A program made the translations under genes and the position numbers. DNA of 64,000 nucleotides. It comes from Pseudomonas oryzihabitans (GTDB lineage: Bacteria; Pseudomonadota; Gammaproteobacteria; Pseudomonadales; Pseudomonadaceae). The stretch is from positions 834,001 to 898,000 of the forward strand of contig NZ_CP021645.1 of assembly GCF_006384975.1 (NCBI RefSeq), given 5' to 3'. The notes below the pieces were generated by a model. The model was not told the origin of the DNA and made no database searches. It saw only the letters and a program-made list of their open reading frames with translations. Shown here piece by piece: positions 36,514 to 46,750 of the stretch. Every line of letters starts with the position of its first letter. Within the stretch, counting starts at the first letter, position 1.

Positions 36514-37678
36514 ATTCCTCAAGCTGGCCGCGCTGTTCAGCGCTGCCGGTGCCTTCCCCCTGTTGCGCAGCCTGGAGGCACGCGCGGCGGCCGAGCCCGA
36601 TGCGCCAGTACGCATCGGCTACCTGCCGATCACCGATGCCACGCCCTTGCTGGTGGCCCACGCCCGCGGCCTGTTCGATGCCGAAGGGGTCAAGGCGGAG
36701 AAGCCGGTGATGCTGCGCAGTTGGGCGCAGGTGGTCGAGGCTTTCCTGTCCGGCCAGGTGAACGTCATCCATCTCCTGTCGCCGATGACCGTCTGGGCCC
36801 GCTACGGCAGCCAGGTACCGGCCAAGGTGGTGGCCTGGAACCACATCGACGGCTCGGGCCTGACCGTGGCGCCGGACATCCATGAGGTGCGCCAACTGGC
36901 CGGGCGCACCGTGGCAATTCCCTTCTGGTACTCCATCCATAACGTGGTGCTGCAGGAATTGCTGCGGCAGCATGGCCTCAAGGCGGTGAGCCGCCCGGCC
37001 GACGCCAGCCTGGCCGCCGATGAGGTCAACCTGCTGGTGCTGGCCCCGTCCGACATGCCACCGGCGCTGGCCAGCGGACGTATCGCTGGCTATATCGTCG
37101 CCGAACCCTTCAACGCCCTGGCGGAAAGCCAGCAGGTCGGGCGCATCCAGCGCTTCACCGGCGACATCTGGCGCAATCACGCCTGCTGCGTGGTGTTCAT
37201 GCACGAGCGCGATCTCAACGAGCGGCCGGAGTGGTCGCAGCGGGTGGTCAATGCCATCGTCAAGGCCCAGGTCTGGACCCGGGAGAACCGGGCCGACGCC
37301 GCGGCCTTGCTGTCCCGCGAAGGCAGCGGTCACTACACGCCTCATCCGGAAAGCCTGCTCAAGCAGGTGCTGGTGCCCAATGCCGCGGCGCGTGGTCGCT
37401 ACCTGGCCGATGGCGCCATCCGCCACGCTGACTGGCACGAGGAGCGTATCGACTTCCAGCCCTATCCCTATCCCAGCTACACCCGCGAATTGGTGAAGAG
37501 ACTCAAGAACACCCTGATCCAGGGCGACGCCGGCTTCCTCGCCAGCCTGGACCCGGAATTCGCCGCCACCGATCTGGTGGACGACCGCTTCGTTCGCCAG
37601 GCCATCGCCGCGGTGGGCGGCATGGGCACCTTCGGCCTCGCCGAAGGCTTCGCCCGCCAGGAGGAGATCCAGGTGTGA
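36479..37678 (+). CDS. SsuA/TauA-type periplasmic substrate-binding protein, Tat-exported
   Basis: A 399-aa binding protein of the nitrate/sulfonate/taurine family. The N-terminus has a twin-arginine signal (SRREFLKLAALFSAAGAF), so it is probably exported folded through Tat. Then come PVRIGYLPITDATPLLVAHA, a GLFDAEGVKAEKP segment, FLSGQVNVIHLLSPMTVWAR and AGRTVAIPFWYSIHNVVLQE, typical of NrtA/SsuA-like proteins. The ATG at 36479 follows AGCGGAG. It overlaps both neighbours (35 bp and 4 bp). It may bind a bulky sulfonate, nitrile or thiocyanate-like compound; ligand unknown. Confidence 0.9.
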   Translation: MCLQDPRPSRREFLKLAALFSAAGAFPLLRSLEARAAAEPDAPVRIGYLPITDATPLLVAHARGLFDAEGVKAEKPVMLRSWAQVVEAFLSGQVNVIHLLSPMTVWARYGSQVPAKVVAWNHIDGSGLTVAPDIHEVRQLAGRTVAIPFWYSIHNVVLQELLRQHGLKAVSRPADASLAADEVNLLVLAPSDMPPALASGRIAGYIVAEPFNALAESQQVGRIQRFTGDIWRNHACCVVFMHERDLNERPEWSQRVVNAIVKAQVWTRENRADAAALLSREGSGHYTPHPESLLKQVLVPNAAARGRYLADGAIRHADWHEERIDFQPYPYPSYTRELVKRLKNTLIQGDAGFLASLDPEFAATDLVDDRFVRQAIAAVGGMGTFGLAEGFARQEEIQV

Positions 37679-38436
37679 GGGAGTCTCGCCTCGAACGCAT
37701 CCTGCTCGGCAGCGCTGGCCTGCTGGTTCTGGTGGTGCTCTGGTGGGCGGCGGTGCAGGGTCTTGCGGCTCCGGGCAGCATGGCCCGGCGCTTCGGTCCT
37801 GGCACCACCTTCGTCAGCCTCTGGCACCTACTGGCCAGCGGCGAACTGTGGCCGCACATTCTGGTCAGCCTGGAGCGGGTACTGATCGGCCTGGGCCTGG
37901 CCTTGCTGGTCGGGGTGCCGCTGGGCTTGCTGGTGGGCTCCTGGCGCGCCCTGGAAACCGCCACCACGCCAGCCTTCCAGTTCCTGCGGATGATCTCGCC
38001 GTTGTCCTGGATGCCCCTGGCGGTGATGGTCATGGGGGTAGGGGACAAGCCCATCTACTTCCTGTTGGCCTTCGCCGCGGTCTGGCCGATCCTGCTCAAT
38101 ACCGCGGCCGGCGTGCGCAACCTGGACCCGCGCTGGCTGCAACTGGCCCACAGCCTGAGCGCCACCCGTTGGGAAGTGCTGCGGCGGGTGGTACTGCCGG
38201 GCGTGCTCGGCCAGGTGCTGACCGGGGTGCGCCTGGCCATCGGCATACTCTGGATCGTGCTGGTGCCTTGCGAAATGCTCGGCGTCAGCGCCGGCCTCGG
38301 CTACTACATCCTCGATACCCGCGATCGCCTGGCCTACGGCGAGCTGATGGCCCTGGTGCTGCTGATCGGCCTGCTGGGCTTCGCCCTGGACTTCCTGGCG
38401 CGGCAACTGCACCAGCGGTTTTTGCCCAGGGGCTAA
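37675..38436 (+). CDS. Nitrate/sulfonate/taurine-type ABC transporter permease (SsuC/TauC-like), GTG start
   Basis: A 253-aa membrane permease with about six transmembrane segments. The EAA-like loop around LAHSLSATRWEVLRRVVLPG, the PAFQFLRMISPLSWMPLAVM stretch and GLGYYILDTRDRLAYGELMA define the SsuC/TauC group. Translation starts at GTG 37675, overlapping the binding-protein stop (GTGA). It completes the ABC transporter of the CMD/flavoprotein operon and is its last gene; a 715-bp non-coding stretch follows. Confidence 0.92.
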   Translation: MRESRLERILLGSAGLLVLVVLWWAAVQGLAAPGSMARRFGPGTTFVSLWHLLASGELWPHILVSLERVLIGLGLALLVGVPLGLLVGSWRALETATTPAFQFLRMISPLSWMPLAVMVMGVGDKPIYFLLAFAAVWPILLNTAAGVRNLDPRWLQLAHSLSATRWEVLRRVVLPGVLGQVLTGVRLAIGILWIVLVPCEMLGVSAGLGYYILDTRDRLAYGELMALVLLIGLLGFALDFLARQLHQRFLPRG

Positions 38437-39151
38437 GGCGGAGCGGGGCGCGCTAAGGACTCATCTGGGTTTCGCCTAGGTTCTGCCGAAACCTTCCGCA
38501 AGCCCGGCCCGCTTCCTATGCTCTGTACGAAAAGCCGCCGAGTGAAGGTCAGGCGAGGCCTAGGCGGCCCCGTGAAAAAGGCTGAGGAAGCGGACCGGAC
38601 TCGCGCTCGACCAGGCTCGCGCTCGAGTTTACGAGCGGTAAATGAGCATTGCGACGGGGCTGGCTAGGCCGGGCTGGCGACCCAGGCCTTTTTCAACGAA
38701 GCATCACCGAGCGCAGGTATTTTCCGTACGCTTTGATTGGCTGGCCCTCTCCCTCCGGGCCAGCCCTCAGCCTTCGCGGCTGGCCTGAGGCTGCCTGGGA
38801 TTTCTTCACCAAGAATCTCAGGCTCTGCAGATTGACCGCTCGCCGCTGTGCTCTGTCACCACCCATCGCCTCCTCGCTATTGCCGTAGCGGAATTTTTTT
38901 GCCGCATCACGGCTATTTATTGCCCATGCAGCAAGGCAAAAAAAATTAATTAAACAAAAGACTGGCTATTAAGCCTGTCGCCTCGCTTGTTGTCCGCCCT
39001 GAAGAATGTAACCCCAATATTTAAAATAAACCGTATTACAATATGGATTTGGCATGCAAGCTGCAATTGTCGAGTGTGCAGCCAAAACTCTTGTTTGGCG
39101 TGCGCTATAAAACGAAGCCGGCAGCCGCCAACATAGAATGGAAGTACGACG
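38437..39151. other. Non-coding junction region between high-GC operon and lower-GC flagellar-cap cassette
   Basis: About 715 bp without a supportable gene. It starts at the GC content of the left neighbour and becomes AT-rich from about 38880 (runs such as AATTTTTTT and AAAAAAAATTAATTAA). It contains a directly repeated CTCGCGCTCGA (38600-38610, 38616-38626), an inverted repeat GAAAAAGGC/GCCTTTTTC (38574-38582, 38686-38694) and a perfect 9-bp hairpin (38739-38747 with 38757-38765), followed by a smaller CAGCC/GGCTG hairpin. It reads like an insertion junction or mobile-element debris, but no transposase remnant is recognisable. The right end holds the sigma-54 promoter listed separately. Confidence 0.5.
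39050..39066 (+). promoter_or_regulatory. Sigma-54 (RpoN) -24/-12 promoter for the flgD-like gene
   Basis: TTGGCATG-CAAG-CTGCAA matches TTGGCACG-N4-TTGCA at all but two key positions, with GG (39051-39052) and GC (39063-39064) separated by exactly 10 bp. Predicted start near 39076, leaving a leader of about 75 nt. Early and middle flagellar genes of Pseudomonas are RpoN/FleQ dependent, which fits the gene it serves. Confidence 0.7.
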
Positions 39152-39898
39152 ATGAGCCCTTCTTTGATTTCAGCCAATAGTGGCTTTGACACCACTTCAA
39201 AGTTTATGAGCAGCCTGTCCAGGAACAAGGGTGAAACCTCATCAAAGATCACTGACGAGACCGCTAACGGCGCTGATAGCAAAGCGAAACGTAGGGACGA
39301 ACTGGGTAAGAATCAGTTTCTGAAGTTGCTCGTGACCCAGATGAATAATCAAAGTCCCTTACAGCCTCAAGCAAATGGCGAGTTTATCGCCCAGCTTGCG
39401 CAGTTCAGTACGGTCGAAGGTATCGAAAACCTGAACAAGAATGTGAAAGCCCTTCTTGATGGGGGGAAGGCTTCCCAGGCGCTGCAAGGGGCTGCTCTGG
39501 TTGGGAAGAATATAATCGTTAGTACCGACAAAACCCAGGTCAATACGGCAGAAGGCACCAAGGGTGCAGTAACCATCCCTAACGCTAGCGCAAATGTTTG
39601 GGTCAATGTCTACGACCCCGCAGGAAAGTTGGTCAATCGCCTGGATCTAGGGCAACAGCCGGCTGGAGTGAGTAGCTTCAAATGGAATGGAAACGATTCC
39701 AGTGGCAAGAAACTCAGCTCTGGTATGTATCGATTTGAAGCTCAGACCACCCTTAAAGGCGTCAATACCGCCCTGAAGACCGATCTCTCCGCCAAGGTCG
39801 AAAGTGTGACTCTCGGAAGAAACGGCAGTGAGATGATGGTTAAAGTGGCGGGCGTTGGAAGCATCCCGCTATCAAAGATCCAGGCAATCGGTCAATAG
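39152..39898 (+). CDS. Orphan FlgD-like flagellar hook-capping protein
   Basis: A 248-aa FlgD family protein, the scaffold cap that guides hook polymerisation. The N-terminal export/cap motif is clear at residues 51-63 (LGKNQFLKLLVTQ), followed by QSPLQP, then FIAQLAQFSTVEGIENLN. The C-terminal part has the FlgD Ig/tudor-like region (VWVNVYDPAGKLVNRLDLG, then FKWNGNDSSGKKLSSGMYRF). Length is normal for FlgD. It lies alone with a fliD-like gene, without hook (flgE), rod or filament genes. Base composition is clearly lower than the surroundings: 29 of 60 bases are G/C at 39181-39240, against about 70% nearby. This suggests horizontal acquisition. It could cap a secondary appendage or be a remnant. 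Confidence 0.85.
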   Translation: MSPSLISANSGFDTTSKFMSSLSRNKGETSSKITDETANGADSKAKRRDELGKNQFLKLLVTQMNNQSPLQPQANGEFIAQLAQFSTVEGIENLNKNVKALLDGGKASQALQGAALVGKNIIVSTDKTQVNTAEGTKGAVTIPNASANVWVNVYDPAGKLVNRLDLGQQPAGVSSFKWNGNDSSGKKLSSGMYRFEAQTTLKGVNTALKTDLSAKVESVTLGRNGSEMMVKVAGVGSIPLSKIQAIGQ

Positions 39899-40001
39899 CA
39901 GACAGGTATCCCGTTTGAAGCGAGGTCTGTCGGAGCCTTTGATCGTTATAGATGCGAGCACGGCCAAGTGGTTGAGCAAACACTGGAAAAGGATTTAAAA
40001 G

Positions 40002-41423
40002 ATGCCTGGGATAGTGGGGATAGGCGGTTCAGGACTCGATATTGACGCTATCGTCAAAAAAAGCGTTGAGGCTGAGAAGGCACCTAAACAAAATCAAATA
40101 AGCAAGACTGAAAAATCGACCACGATCAATATCACCGCATTGGGAGCGCTCCGGAGTGCCATTAGCGAATTCCAAAGCGCTTTGGCGGAGCTCAGCAAAA
40201 GCTCGAGCTTCACCGTTCGATCAGTCAGCTTGTCAAGCAAGGGTCATTTCACCGCAAGTGCCGGTTCGAATGTCACCACTGGCTCTTACAAAATAGAGGT
40301 TACGCAACTTGCCAGCAGCAGCAAAATTGCCCTGGCCGCGATACCCGCAGGTGCAAAACTAGACTATGGAACCCTGACCATCAAGGTTGGCAGCAAGATC
40401 GCTTTAGAGGTCAACGTCGATAAAAACAACAACAGCCTGGCCGGTATCCGAGACGCGATAAACAAGGCTGGGAAGGAACAAGGGGTCAGCGCTACGATAA
40501 TAAATGACGCCTCTGGCTCTCGCTTGATCCTTTCAACAACCAATACCGGCGCAGGAAATGACATATCGGTTAGCGTGAAGGAAGGCCAGCGAGCAGGTCA
40601 GCAGAGCTTGCAACGGCTAGCGTTCGCGCCAGGAAATGGTAATGGTAACGCCGGCTCCGGTGATGATGGCGCCAAAGTCATAAGCAAAGCCGCTGACGCA
40701 TTGTTAACGGTCGACGGTCTGAAGTTGTCCAGTGCCTCAAATGTCGTGAGTAACGCCATAGAGGGTGTGACCTTGACACTTACGGCAACGACTCAAAAGG
40801 GCAGTGCCGTTACGCTGGGTATAGAAAAGGATGAAGGTGCGATCAAAGGCAACGTCAAGAAATTTGTAGACTCCTACAATAAATTGATGGGCGTCATTGC
40901 GACGCAAACCAAAGTCACTATTGTGAACAATAACAGCAGGCCTGTGGCCGGAGCCTTGGTGGGCGACGCCACGGCTCGCACGCTAACAGCGACGATCAGA
41001 AATGAACTGGTAAACATGCAAGGTGCTGGCTCTGTAAAGGCCCTTGCCCACTTGGGTATCACAACGACGAAAGAAGGAACCCTGGCACTCGATGATGCAA
41101 AGTTGAGTAAGGTTGTTTCGGAAAAATCAGATGATATTACCGATTTTTTTACCAGCTCTCGCGGTCTTGCTTCTAGAATGAAAGCAAAACTCGATCCTTA
41201 CGACAAAGCCGGCGGAATCCTGGAGCAACGTAATTCTGCACTTACCGATAAATTAAAGAAAGTCGACTCGCAAAAGGCACAGCTCGATATGAGAATGACT
41301 GAGCTCCAGGTTCGACTATACAAAAAATACAACGCCATGGATGCACTTTATTCAAGGCTTTCGGCCACGGCGGACAGCTTATTGAAAAGCTTGGCATCAA
41401 CGCCTTTTGCTAGAAAAGACTAG
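40002..41423 (+). CDS. Orphan FliD-like flagellar filament-capping protein
   Basis: A 473-aa FliD family protein, the filament cap that promotes flagellin assembly and often mediates mucin adhesion. It has the FliD_N motif IGGSGLDIDAIVKKSVEAEK, a Ser/Thr-rich variable middle with a GNGNGNAGSGDDG linker (about residues 207-219), and a FliD_C region (VKKFVDSYNKLMGVIATQTK, ALAHLGITTTKEGTLALDD, the late LSRL-like YSRLSATADSLLKSLAS helix). Both termini are intact and the length is typical. AAGGA precedes ATG 40002. It follows the flgD-like gene by 103 bp on the same strand and shares its lower GC content, so the two were probably acquired together. Confidence 0.88.
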   Translation: MPGIVGIGGSGLDIDAIVKKSVEAEKAPKQNQISKTEKSTTINITALGALRSAISEFQSALAELSKSSSFTVRSVSLSSKGHFTASAGSNVTTGSYKIEVTQLASSSKIALAAIPAGAKLDYGTLTIKVGSKIALEVNVDKNNNSLAGIRDAINKAGKEQGVSATIINDASGSRLILSTTNTGAGNDISVSVKEGQRAGQQSLQRLAFAPGNGNGNAGSGDDGAKVISKAADALLTVDGLKLSSASNVVSNAIEGVTLTLTATTQKGSAVTLGIEKDEGAIKGNVKKFVDSYNKLMGVIATQTKVTIVNNNSRPVAGALVGDATARTLTATIRNELVNMQGAGSVKALAHLGITTTKEGTLALDDAKLSKVVSEKSDDITDFFTSSRGLASRMKAKLDPYDKAGGILEQRNSALTDKLKKVDSQKAQLDMRMTELQVRLYKKYNAMDALYSRLSATADSLLKSLASTPFARKD

Positions 41424-41810
41424 CATTGATTGTCGGCAGTATTTCAATGAAGCCTTCGAGAGCCCATGGATGATCGCTCACAGGCGATTAGCTGTTGCAG
41501 AACGATGGGAATTGGCAGGATGAAATCCATCGGTACCCATGACGATGCGCGTAAGCTCAGTTTAAGCCGAAGCGGCACAGCAACAGACAGAAGCCTGGGT
41601 CTGAGCAGGCCCGCAACGGCCACTCGATCTGGGGGCGAGCCCGAGCATGACCTGCTGGGCAGGCAATTCCGGTCGTGCGGGCTGCTGGCGGAAGTCGCGG
41701 ACTCAGCCCTCCGCGGGTGCGTCTAGCTGTTGTCGATGGGCTGTGCGGACCGCCGCGGTCTGAGCGCCAATGGATACTTACCGGGCGTGATCAGATCCGG
41801 GAGTGGCTCC
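41424..41810. other. Intergenic region after the flagellar-cap cassette, no supportable gene
   Basis: 387 bp between fliD-like and the convergent GNAT gene. An open frame at 41466-41726 exists, but its product (Arg/Ser-rich, no family motif, no ribosome site) looks like chance. GC content climbs back to the local level after about 41600. I see no terminator with a T-run and no inverted repeat matching the left junction. Confidence 0.5.
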
Positions 41811-42653
41811 TCAGCCCAGCGCCTGGGTCAGCAGGGCGAACTGATCCAGGCCGTCGCGGGGCTCGGGTGCCTTGCCCTTGGCCATCTGTTCCACCTCATC
41901 GACCTGCGGGATGCCCCGCTCGATGAGCCAGGGATTGAGGCCACTGCGCCCGGTCACGTCGAATCTCACGTAACGGCCCTCGGCGTGGCGCAGCAGGGCC
42001 AGGCTGAGCGCCTGGGCCTGCGCGGTGGATTCGGCTATCACCGGGCCGACCGACAGACCGCGGCCATAGGGGCGGAGCAGGGCGAAGCCGCGTAACTGGC
42101 CGTCGCGCTCCAGGCCGACGATAGTTTCGGCCTGCGGCAGCAGTTCCCGGAGCAGGGCGGTGCGCTCCAGTCCGGTAGCGGCCTGGGCCAGGCTTTCCAG
42201 CTGCGGGGCATCCGCCAGGGACAGCACACGAACCTGCGCTTCCAACGGGTGCGGCGCGCCCATGGCCGGTAGCGCCGCGATCTGGTGCTGATAGATGCGC
42301 TCGTAGGAGGCGAAGCCCTGGCTGCGGTAGAGCGGGGCGCCGCGCAGGGTGGCGACCAGCAGCGGGGTGCGGCTGCCGGCCAGTTGCAGCAGGCCGTCCA
42401 TGAGGCGTCGGCCATGGCCTTGGCCCTGGTGGCTATCGGCGACGATCACCAGGCCGATGGTGGCGTAGTCGCCCTGGGGTACACAGAAACCGGTGCCGAA
42501 TACGCCCTGGTCGTCCTCCAGCACCAGGCCTTCGCCGGTATGGAACAGGCATTGCCAGTCTTCCAGGCGATGGGGCCACTGCAGCGCCTGGGACAGGCGG
42601 TGGGCGGTGGCGAGGTCGGTTTCGCGCAGGGGTCTCAGGGTGACATTGGACAC
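41811..42653 (-). CDS. GNAT-family N-acetyltransferase with second C-terminal domain
   Basis: A 280-aa acetyltransferase. The N-terminal half is a GNAT fold with acetyl-CoA loop VIVADSHQGQGHGRRLMDGL (the Q/RxxGxG/A pattern). The C-terminal half (about 140-280) resembles the Acetyltransf_18-type domain found after GNAT domains in this group (SVGPVIAESTAQAQALSLAL, DVTGRSGLNPWLIERGI). Start is GTG 42653 with GGAG upstream. It is divergent from the aldehyde dehydrogenase gene. It may acetylate a small amine linked to the neighbouring catabolic genes; substrate unknown. Confidence 0.87.
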   Translation of the reverse strand: MSNVTLRPLRETDLATAHRLSQALQWPHRLEDWQCLFHTGEGLVLEDDQGVFGTGFCVPQGDYATIGLVIVADSHQGQGHGRRLMDGLLQLAGSRTPLLVATLRGAPLYRSQGFASYERIYQHQIAALPAMGAPHPLEAQVRVLSLADAPQLESLAQAATGLERTALLRELLPQAETIVGLERDGQLRGFALLRPYGRGLSVGPVIAESTAQAQALSLALLRHAEGRYVRFDVTGRSGLNPWLIERGIPQVDEVEQMAKGKAPEPRDGLDQFALLTQALG

Positions 42654-42836
42654 GGCAAGGCTCCGGTTCGGGTCTGACAGATTCGGGCATCAGCCTAGCA
42701 AGCGCCGACGGCAGATTCGGTTGCGCTGTGGTGGCCGCACCGGCGCGAGCCGCCGAAGGTCTGGGCCAGTTCGGCAAAAGATGATGACCCGTCCGCCTAG
42801 CATGGGGCCAAGCCCACAGCCCTAGCGGAGCGCGCC

Positions 42837-45175: not shown

Positions 45176-46468
45176 ATGAGTCACGGCCCAGCATCGTCCG
45201 AATCCTACTGGCTGGCGACCGCGCCGACCTTTACCGGCGGCGCCCAGGGGCCGGTCGCGGGGGAAGTCGATGTCGCCGTCATCGGCGGCGGCTTCACCGG
45301 GCTGTCGGCGGCCGTGGCGCTGCGCAAGCGCGGTGCCAGCGTGGCGGTACTGGAGGCCGGCCGGGTGATCGGCGAAGCCTCCGGCCGCAACGGAGGGCAT
45401 TGCAATACCGGGGTCGCGCAGGACTATGCGTCCCTGCGTGCCAGCCTGGGCCCCGAGCGGGCCCAGGCCTTCTACCAGGCCTATGCCGATGCGGTGGCCA
45501 GCGTCGAGGCGGTGATCGCCGAAGAGGGGATCGCCTGCGACTTCCACAAGGCGGGCAAGCTCAAGCTGGCGGCCAAGCCGCAGCATTATGACAACCTGGC
45601 GCGCACCTGCGAGCTGATCCGCGCGGAGGTCGATCCGGACGTGGAACTGCTCGGCCCTGCACAGACGCGGATCGAGGTGGCCTCCGACGGATTTTACGGC
45701 GGCCTGCTGCAACGCAATGGCGCCCAGATGCACATGGGGCGCTTCGGCGTGGGCTTGGCGGAAGCGGCGGTACGCCGTGGCGCCCAGGTCTACGAAGGGG
45801 CGGCGGTGAGCGATCTGCAGCGCCTGCCGGACGGCAGCTTCCGCGTGGTGAGTGCTAAGGGCGAATTGCGTGCCCGCCAGGTGCTGGTGGCCACGGGCAA
45901 TGCCAGCATTGGGCCCTTCCAGTGGTTTCGCCGACGCATCGCCTCGGTGGGCAGCTTCATCATCGCCACCGCGCCACTACCGAAGGAGCAATTGGATGCA
46001 CTGCTGCCCAACCGGCGCACCTATGTGACCAGCCGCATCATTGGCAACTATTTCCGCACCACACCGGACCACCGGCTGATCTTTGGCGGCCGGGCGCGCT
46101 TCGCCTTGTCCGATCCGCGCCAGGACGCCAAGAGCGGTGCCGTGCTGCGCAACGCCCTCGGCCAACTCTTTCCCAGCTTGGCCCAGGCGCCCATCGACTA
46201 TTGCTGGGGCGGCCTGGTGGACATGACCGCTGACCGTCTGCCCCGGGCTGGTGAGCAGGATGGCCTGTTCTACGCCATGGGCTACAGCGGCCATGGGGTG
46301 CAGATGTCGGTGCACATGGGCCGGGTGATGGCCGAGGTGCTGGAAGGGCGCAGCCAGGCCAATCCCTGGCGCGTGCTGGATTGGCCGGCCATTCCCGGCC
46401 ACTTCGGCAAGCCCTGGTTCCTGCCGCTGGTAGGGCTGTACTACCGGGTGCAGGATCGACTGCACTGA
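45176..46468 (+). CDS. FAD-dependent amine/amino-acid oxidase (DAO family, PuuB/OrdL-like)
   Basis: A 430-aa D-amino-acid-oxidase-fold flavoprotein. It has the dinucleotide motif VAVIGGGFTGLSAAVALRKR (about residues 31-50), the EASGRNGGHCNTG flavin segment, and a C-terminal YAMGYSGHGVQMSVHMGRVM. This pattern matches gamma-glutamylputrescine oxidase and related enzymes, which oxidise secondary or primary amines to aldehydes with hydrogen peroxide release. CAGGAG precedes ATG 45176. It shares a promoter module with the ABC/dehydrogenase operon downstream and is followed by a strong terminator. Confidence 0.92.
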   Translation: MSHGPASSESYWLATAPTFTGGAQGPVAGEVDVAVIGGGFTGLSAAVALRKRGASVAVLEAGRVIGEASGRNGGHCNTGVAQDYASLRASLGPERAQAFYQAYADAVASVEAVIAEEGIACDFHKAGKLKLAAKPQHYDNLARTCELIRAEVDPDVELLGPAQTRIEVASDGFYGGLLQRNGAQMHMGRFGVGLAEAAVRRGAQVYEGAAVSDLQRLPDGSFRVVSAKGELRARQVLVATGNASIGPFQWFRRRIASVGSFIIATAPLPKEQLDALLPNRRTYVTSRIIGNYFRTTPDHRLIFGGRARFALSDPRQDAKSGAVLRNALGQLFPSLAQAPIDYCWGGLVDMTADRLPRAGEQDGLFYAMGYSGHGVQMSVHMGRVMAEVLEGRSQANPWRVLDWPAIPGHFGKPWFLPLVGLYYRVQDRLH

Positions 46469-46496
46469 GCGCCTGCATTAACCGCTGAACACCGCG

Positions 46497-46545
46497 AACC
46501 GCCAGCCGCGGCGCTCCAACAGAAGAGCCGCGGCTGGCGGTTTTT
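46497..46545 (+). terminator. Strong intrinsic terminator after the amine oxidase gene
   Basis: A perfect 16-bp GC-rich stem (46497-46512 with 46527-46542), a 14-nt loop and a run of five T at 46541-46545. It lies 28 bp after the oxidase stop. It separates the HAD/oxidase unit from the ABC transporter operon. Confidence 0.9.
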
Positions 46546-46750
46546 GCCTTTCTACCTCGCCAGGACCGTCCCCTGCCGCTCTGGCCAGGTAGGGCAACAC
46601 CCCGGAGCAGAAACTGCTGAAACGTCCGGCTTTTGGACCCTTGCAAGCCTTTTAGCGCCGCCAGAAACGCCGTTCGGCAACCAGGCAAGATAGCCTTCAA
46701 ACGCGCCAAATCCGGGCATTGGCGGCCCTGTTGCGCCGTCGCGAAGCACA
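46546..46750. other. Non-coding stretch between terminator and promoter module
   Basis: Together with the terminator and promoter module this is part of a 474-bp gap without a supportable gene. I see no family-like open frame and no further symmetric element of note. Confidence 0.4.

What the first reader, a model, noticed from the sequence alone, without database searches (positions are those of the whole stretch)
39050..41423. Orphan flagellar cap pair: flgD-like and fliD-like genes alone behind a sigma-54 promoter
Seen: intact genes for a hook-cap and a filament-cap homologue, with lower GC than their surroundings, a near-consensus -24/-12 element with the exact 10-bp GG-GC gap, and no hook, rod, flagellin or chaperone genes on either side. 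Known: flgD and fliD normally reside in separate large flagellar operons and both encode polymerisation caps. Inference: pairing the two caps suggests a mobile cassette that alters or caps the host's flagellum (for example adhesion through a variant FliD, or interference with hook and filament growth).
Basis: partly seen in the sequence, partly recalled or inferred. Interest (0 to 1): 0.75.

Follow-up and report, generated by a model that had tools for sequence, protein, structure and literature searches.

The report
Orphan hook-cap and filament-cap gene pair
A Pseudomonas carries, besides its normal flagellum genes, a small separate unit encoding only a spare hook cap and a spare filament cap; the same pair seems to exist in a second, diverged lineage, so it looks like a conserved unit whose role is untested.

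Summary
Intact flgD-like (39152-39898) and fliD-like (40002-41423) genes form a two-gene unit with a sigma-54 motif 102 bp before the first ATG and non-flagellar neighbours. The genome (a Pseudomonas, oryzihabitans group) also has canonical flgD (54% identity) and fliD (59%) about 1 Mb away in a polar-flagellum cluster. The pair was not found in the 12 other genus genomes. It lies in a 3.4-kb stretch; two relatives with collinear flanks carry other genes there. No remnants of other flagellar genes and no mobility genes were found in it.

(2) Both orphans form clades apart from canonical caps yet keep 39 of 40 (FliD) and 68 of 77 (FlgD) otherwise invariant residues, which points to purifying selection.

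Most likely the pair makes alternative caps for the host's own flagellum. Function and mobility are inference. Low GC is weaker evidence of foreignness than claimed, because canonical cap genes are GC-poor too.

The parts
39050..39065 (+). sigma-54-type -24/-12 motif TGGCATGCAAGCTGCA, 102 bp (motif start to ATG) before the first gene
39152..39898 (+). orphan flgD-like gene (hook cap homologue), 248 aa, FLKLL at residues 56-60
39899..40001 (+). 103-bp intergenic gap between the two genes; no remnant of other flagellar genes detected
40002..41423 (+). orphan fliD-like gene (filament cap homologue), 473 aa
38444..41810 (.). 3.4-kb stretch that interrupts collinearity with relatives G006 and G007; besides the pair only ORFs without family matches
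38516..38729 (.). dispersed intergenic repeat at the left side of the stretch (62 matches in the genome for the 715-bp query, own place included and some being pieces of one copy; six others long)
41424..41810 (.). right intergenic part, no match in 12 other genus genomes
37675..38436 (+). left neighbour: ABC transporter permease, not flagellar
41811..42653 (-). right neighbour: GNAT acetyltransferase; 51-91% identical full-length match in 10 of 12 other genus genomes

Best explanation
The pair is an intact, selectively maintained two-gene operon encoding an alternative hook cap (FlgD) and an alternative filament cap (FliD). It is probably transcribed by RNA polymerase with sigma-54 together with other flagellar genes. 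The stretch encodes no rod, hook, flagellin, chaperone or export gene, so its products would have to be exported by, and act on, the host's own polar flagellum, in place of or mixed with the canonical caps. The filament tip would then carry a FliD that differs most from the canonical one in its middle part (residues 201-280), which I take for the exposed domain. Shown: gene identity, intactness, canonical copies elsewhere, collinear flanks in two relatives, clades apart from the canonical caps, conservation of core residues. Inferred: the second occurrence of the pair, promoter activity, export, incorporation into the flagellum, and any effect on the tip.
For: Canonical flgD and fliD at 1868662-1869342 and 1847603-1849039. 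Of 32 mechanical ORFs listed in that 40-kb region I gave 10 to Pfam; 10 of 10 matched flagellar families or FleQ. Trees: orphan FliD + P0002 + P0003 are one clade (100/100), grouped (97/92) with the canonical clade of the oryzihabitans group (98/93); orphan FlgD + P0122 + P0123 are one clade (100/100) apart from the canonical FlgD rows (midpoint roots). Core kept: FliD 39 of 40 and FlgD 68 of 77 columns that are invariant in the 46 and 32 non-orphan rows; differences between orphan lineages avoid those columns (Fisher p 9.5e-5 FliD; 1e-10 and 6.4e-7 FlgD). The pair in a second lineage: the 51-aa extension of P0003 is codon-compatible with the FlgD tail ALSKVQAIGQ-stop of P0122 in another frame, 11 residues; best of 60 control pieces 6. 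FLKLL is kept where, by homology, FlgD has its export-gate motif (Salmonella residues 36-40; PMC8983047 passages). Sigma-54 motif.
Against: No expression, export or phenotype data. Orphan branches are longer than canonical ones; relative-rate tests reach p < 0.05 in 2 of 6 comparisons (FliD 0.21, 0.016, 0.18; FlgD 0.13, 0.02, 0.10), which would also fit relaxed constraint. Orphan FlgD misses the NCBIfam FlgD cut-off that canonical-type FlgD P0143 just passes (210.5 and 231.8 against 230). The pair is rare. dN/dS could not be computed because no DNA of the second lineage was available. No FleQ-like site above chance. The adjacency in P0003 rests on codon compatibility, not on the contig itself.
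Confidence: 0.5

Rival explanations
1. The pair is a leftover of a second, once complete flagellar cluster. In the canonical cluster flgD and fliD lie in the same direction about 20 kb apart, so an internal deletion in a duplicated or imported cluster would bring them together; they have since lost function or are losing it.
For: Same orientation and order as in the canonical cluster; somewhat longer branches; rarity.
Against: No trace of other cluster genes upstream, between or downstream at nucleotide level, and nothing above background in the protein-level rows seen (output partly cut). The same two-gene arrangement is inferred in a lineage about 25% diverged, so the pair was already a pair and has stayed intact. 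A promoter motif lies directly before flgD.
Confidence: 0.2
2. A cassette that interferes with the host flagellum: mismatched caps poison hook or filament growth, for example to protect a mobile element or its host from flagellum-binding phages.
For: Two polymerisation caps and nothing else; all three flagellin-family matches of the genome lie in the canonical region.
Against: Core residues conserved as in canonical caps; no close relative on phages, plasmids or viral contigs; nothing known about the strain's motility.
Confidence: 0.1
3. A recent neutral acquisition: functional in its donor, silent and on its way out here.
For: Not found in 12 other genus genomes; low GC.
Against: Intact in three sequence variants (P0001, P0002 and the window's own); promoter motif in place.
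Confidence: 0.2

Closest known systems
Canonical Pseudomonas FlgD and FliD of the polar flagellum (own genome; P. aeruginosa structures 3osv and 5fhy)
   Same: Same domains along the length, 54-59% identity to the own canonical copies; best solved relatives are 3osv (FlgD) and 5fhy (labelled B-type flagellar hook-associated protein 2); that both are from P. aeruginosa is recalled.
   Different: Linked as two genes behind one sigma-54 motif, outside any flagellar cluster; own clades in both trees.
a-type / b-type FliD of P. aeruginosa (alternative filament caps; recalled)
   Same: Alternative FliD forms within one group of bacteria.
   Different: As recalled, a/b types are allelic at the canonical locus and go with flagellin type. 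Here the second FliD is additional, elsewhere, and paired with a FlgD.
Second flagellar systems (P. fluorescens F113; Vibrio lateral flagella, the latter recalled)
   Same: A second set of flagellar genes in one genome; F113 makes two types of flagella (PMC8036289 passages).
   Different: Those are whole systems; here only two caps, with no extra hook, rod or export genes in the stretch.
Orphan flagellar genes in Rhodobacterales
   Same: Flagellar genes outside the cluster, three of them co-regulated with it (PMC11974857, one passage).
   Different: Other bacteria; a cap pair is not mentioned in that passage.

Membership tests
FlgD hook-cap family | FlgD N-terminal domain plus Ig-like and Tudor-like domains | tested here: met
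   three Pfam matches over cut-off; 68 of 77 invariant columns kept
FlgD hook-cap family | supports hook polymerisation | not testable with these tools
   needs an experiment
FlgD, NCBIfam equivalog NF005176 | score at or above the curated cut-off | tested here: not met
   210.5 bits against 230; control: canonical-type FlgD P0143 scores 231.8. A diverged family member, not the equivalog by that cut-off
FliD filament-cap family | FliD_N and FliD_C domains and conserved terminal stretches | tested here: met
FliD, NCBIfam equivalog NF005955 | score at or above the curated cut-off | tested here: not met
   244 bits against 387; not telling, because the own canonical FliD also misses it (275)
Second flagellar system | further rod, hook, flagellin or export genes beside the caps | tested here: not met
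   only the two cap genes recognised in 38444-41810, non-flagellar direct neighbours; the three flagellin-family matches of the genome lie in the canonical region. Rod, hook and export families were not searched genome-wide
Mobile genetic element | integrase/transposase, flanking repeats, or presence on phages or plasmids | tested here: not met
   four further ORFs of 80 aa or more that lie in or reach into the stretch gave no Pfam or PHROGs match (4 of 4; a fifth, in another frame of the permease, reaches in by 13 bases and was not tested); no bracketing repeat. A dispersed intergenic repeat lies on the left. Mobility genes further out in the window were not searched for
RpoN (sigma-54) dependent operon | -24/-12 element at the right spacing before the operon | tested here: met
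   one base off the recalled -12 consensus; activity not tested

The most novel reading that the evidence does not exclude
A conserved, horizontally shared 're-tipping' cassette: two cap genes alone, switched on with the flagellar regulon, that exchange the hook cap and filament cap of the host's own flagellum and so change what the flagellar tip binds (surfaces, hosts or phages) without replacing the rest of the machine.
Probability: 0.25. Interest if true: 0.7.

Novelty: new variant of a known kind. Interest (0 to 1): 0.42.

Why it matters
Hook cap and filament cap act one after the other on the same growing structure and are normally encoded in different operons. A stand-alone unit holding just these two suggests that they can be exchanged together and that a cell may run two cap sets on one flagellum. 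That makes an open question testable with gene removals: whether caps are interchangeable parts, and whether the tip FliD is varied separately from flagellin.

Tried and rejected
Phage or plasmid origin: tblastn of FliD in plasmids gave 83 records, all under 60% identity (best row 44.7%), and in phages 4 Listeria phage records at 26%. Two IMG/VR scans, which reach close relatives only, gave none. PHROGs had no match for either protein.

Decayed cluster end: canonical cluster against the three flanking pieces. Nucleotide matches were at most 23 bp. Protein-level matches seen had E of 0.01 or more; my script cut each of the three lists, so not all rows were seen.

Second FliD copies in other relatives (G015, G019, G027, G031, and the FliD of G035): five loci read with the orphan proteins as query. 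FliD found in 5 of 5, no FlgD at E 1e-3 in any; one locus is only 9 kb. So they are not the same pair.

FleQ site: 2 matches against 3.0 expected in the window, no support. Rfam: no match in 38300-42700. Sigma-70-type scan: none in 38400-42000 against 2.1 expected.

Literature: searches for flgD and fliD with P. oryzihabitans, for fliD2/flgD2, for paralogues or orphan copies, for second flagellar systems and for cap genes outside the cluster listed nothing whose title, listing or passages seen describe a stand-alone flgD-fliD pair. The library holds open-licence papers only, so this is weak evidence of absence.

First GC3 figures for the canonical genes were computed on the wrong strand and were replaced.

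Full report
What is there. The window is 834001-898000 of a single-contig 5.36-Mb genome. One of its same-genus relatives, G009, has a contig of the same length as P. oryzihabitans YY7, so I place it in the oryzihabitans group; the species itself was not named by any tool. At 39152-39898 and 40002-41423 (+) lie full-length FlgD-like and FliD-like genes, 103 bp apart, each with its Pfam domains over cut-off. The closest solved relatives are FlgD 3osv and B-type FliD 5fhy. A sigma-54 motif with correct spacing starts 102 bp before the first ATG. The same pattern occurs 46 times in the genome against 11 for a reversed control. I read the surroundings of 30 of the 46 matches; 1 of these 30 stands 51 bp before the canonical rod gene that I take for flgB, and 15 of 30 lie inside larger ORFs of the same strand, so the pattern alone is not proof of a promoter.

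Canonical copies exist. The same genome has flgD (54% identical) and fliD (59%) about 20 kb apart. From 32 mechanical ORFs of that region I gave ten to Pfam, and 10 of 10 gave flagellar or FleQ matches (FleQ, FliT, FlaG, flagellin, FlgK, FlgH, FlgE and rod/hook-type domains; the labels FlgL, FlgG and FlgB are mine). The three flagellin-family matches of the genome are all there; two are flagellins differing by 8 of 1449 nucleotides, the third lies in the FlgL-like gene.

Where it sits. Flanks 33.0-38.4 kb and 41.8-47.3 kb or more are collinear in G006 and G007 at 82-87% nucleotide identity. Between them those genomes carry about 2.8 kb that includes a second ABC permease and a stretch similar to the ABC ATPase gene, instead of the pair. 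In the other loci compared only the GNAT side, or the ABC side, aligns at length. In G010, which has the highest identity on the GNAT side (90.9%), a 66-bp match to the end of the permease stands next to the GNAT gene. The pair thus lies in a 3.4-kb stretch (38444-41810) that varies between species. It contains one copy of a dispersed intergenic repeat at 38516-38729 and a right end without match in the 12 other genus genomes. No direct repeat brackets it. Four further ORFs of 80 aa or more that lie in or reach into it gave no Pfam or PHROGs match (4 of 4).

Spread. Each of the 12 other genus genomes has one FliD match only. In 398 family genomes, 196 have an FlgD match at E 1e-60; apart from the orphan itself no listed row is above 59% identity (rows are ordered by E-value, and the tail was not listed). 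Among 390 order genomes only this genome and G006 pass E 1e-140, the latter with one match at 58%. In the protein collection, FliD has near-identical entries P0001 and P0002 and one 74% relative, P0003, before the next at 58%; a search from P0003 found no further member (next 56%). FlgD has P0122 (76% over 85%; 68% over the whole alignment) and P0123 (64%) before others at about 60%. P0003 and P0122 come from unnamed short contigs; whether these are metagenomic was not shown.

The pair in a second lineage. P0003 begins 51 residues before the FliD start. I asked whether that extension could be the far end of a flgD gene read in another frame. The tail ALSKVQAIGQ-stop of P0122 fits over 11 codons, up to the very start of the extension, and would end 118 bp before the fliD start (103 bp in the window). 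Tails of four other FlgD proteins, canonical ones included, fit over 10 codons; 60 random 16-residue pieces, drawn from the fetched FlgD and FliD proteins, reached at most 6. The test indicates that some flgD lies directly before this fliD. In the own genome canonical flgD and fliD are 20 kb apart, so this looks like the same gene pair. It rests on codon compatibility alone, because the contig could not be fetched.

Age and selection. The FliD tree (49 rows; 22 of the 120 listed proteins plus 26 loci and the orphan) groups the orphan clade with the canonical clade of the oryzihabitans group (97/92), which itself has 98/93. The FlgD tree (35 rows; 22 of 120 listed proteins plus 12 loci and the orphan) gives orphan + P0122 + P0123 at 100/100, apart from both the canonical oryzihabitans rows and the other rows. 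Both roots are midpoints. Both genes therefore seem to have split from the canonical line before the present species of the group did. They keep 39 of 40 and 68 of 77 columns invariant in the other rows, and changes between orphan lineages avoid those columns. At columns at least 90% conserved the orphans keep 90 of 97 (FliD) and 92 of 117 (FlgD), against 97 and 115 for the own canonical copies, so FlgD in particular is looser. By 40-residue stretches, FliD identity to the own canonical copy is lowest at 201-240 (15 of 37) and 241-280 (19 of 40) and highest at 321-360 (32 of 40).

Composition. GC is about 0.50; seven neighbouring ORFs have 0.62-0.72. The canonical caps are at 0.57-0.59, and one relative's canonical fliD is at 0.53. 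Low GC alone is therefore poor proof of foreign origin; absence from relatives is better.

How it may work. The stretch encodes only caps, so they would have to use the host's export gate and structures. Orphan FlgD keeps FLKLL at 56-60. [quoted passage not shown] equating the two is my inference. In Pseudomonas, flgD is listed as class III and fliD as class II (table passage in PMC8036289), and the filament cap is among the early FleQ/RpoN genes of P. aeruginosa (passage in PMC3930126); in P. putida, however, fliD depends on FliA (PMC8036289). One sigma-54 promoter for both would join the two classes. Whether the caps are used, mixed in, or harmful is not shown.

Verdict. The mobile and interference parts of the interpretation are not supported by anything found. 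I rate it a new variant of a known kind, moderately interesting, with a simple set of gene removals that would decide.

Noticed in passing
G011 (same genus), G011:C41:270138-271475, locus L114: G011 is close to the window's genome by its flanking genes (GNAT 91%, ABC permease 92%), yet its FliD is only 37% identical to the orphan and it has no FlgD match at E 1e-60. Its flagellar cluster may have been replaced as a whole.
   Followed up: partly
38516-38729: Dispersed intergenic repeat with 62 matches in the genome for the surrounding 715-bp query; matching pieces of relatives G009 and G002 lie at the junction equivalent to 46466-46702.
   Followed up: partly
G000:C1:1849587-1852797 (locus L112:14588-17798): Two almost identical flagellin genes in tandem, 8 of 1449 nucleotides different.
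   Followed up: partly
G000:C1:2965361-2966858: Five sigma-54-like motifs in one direction, four of them 75-81 bp apart within 250 bp: a repeated promoter-like or other tandem element.
   Followed up: no
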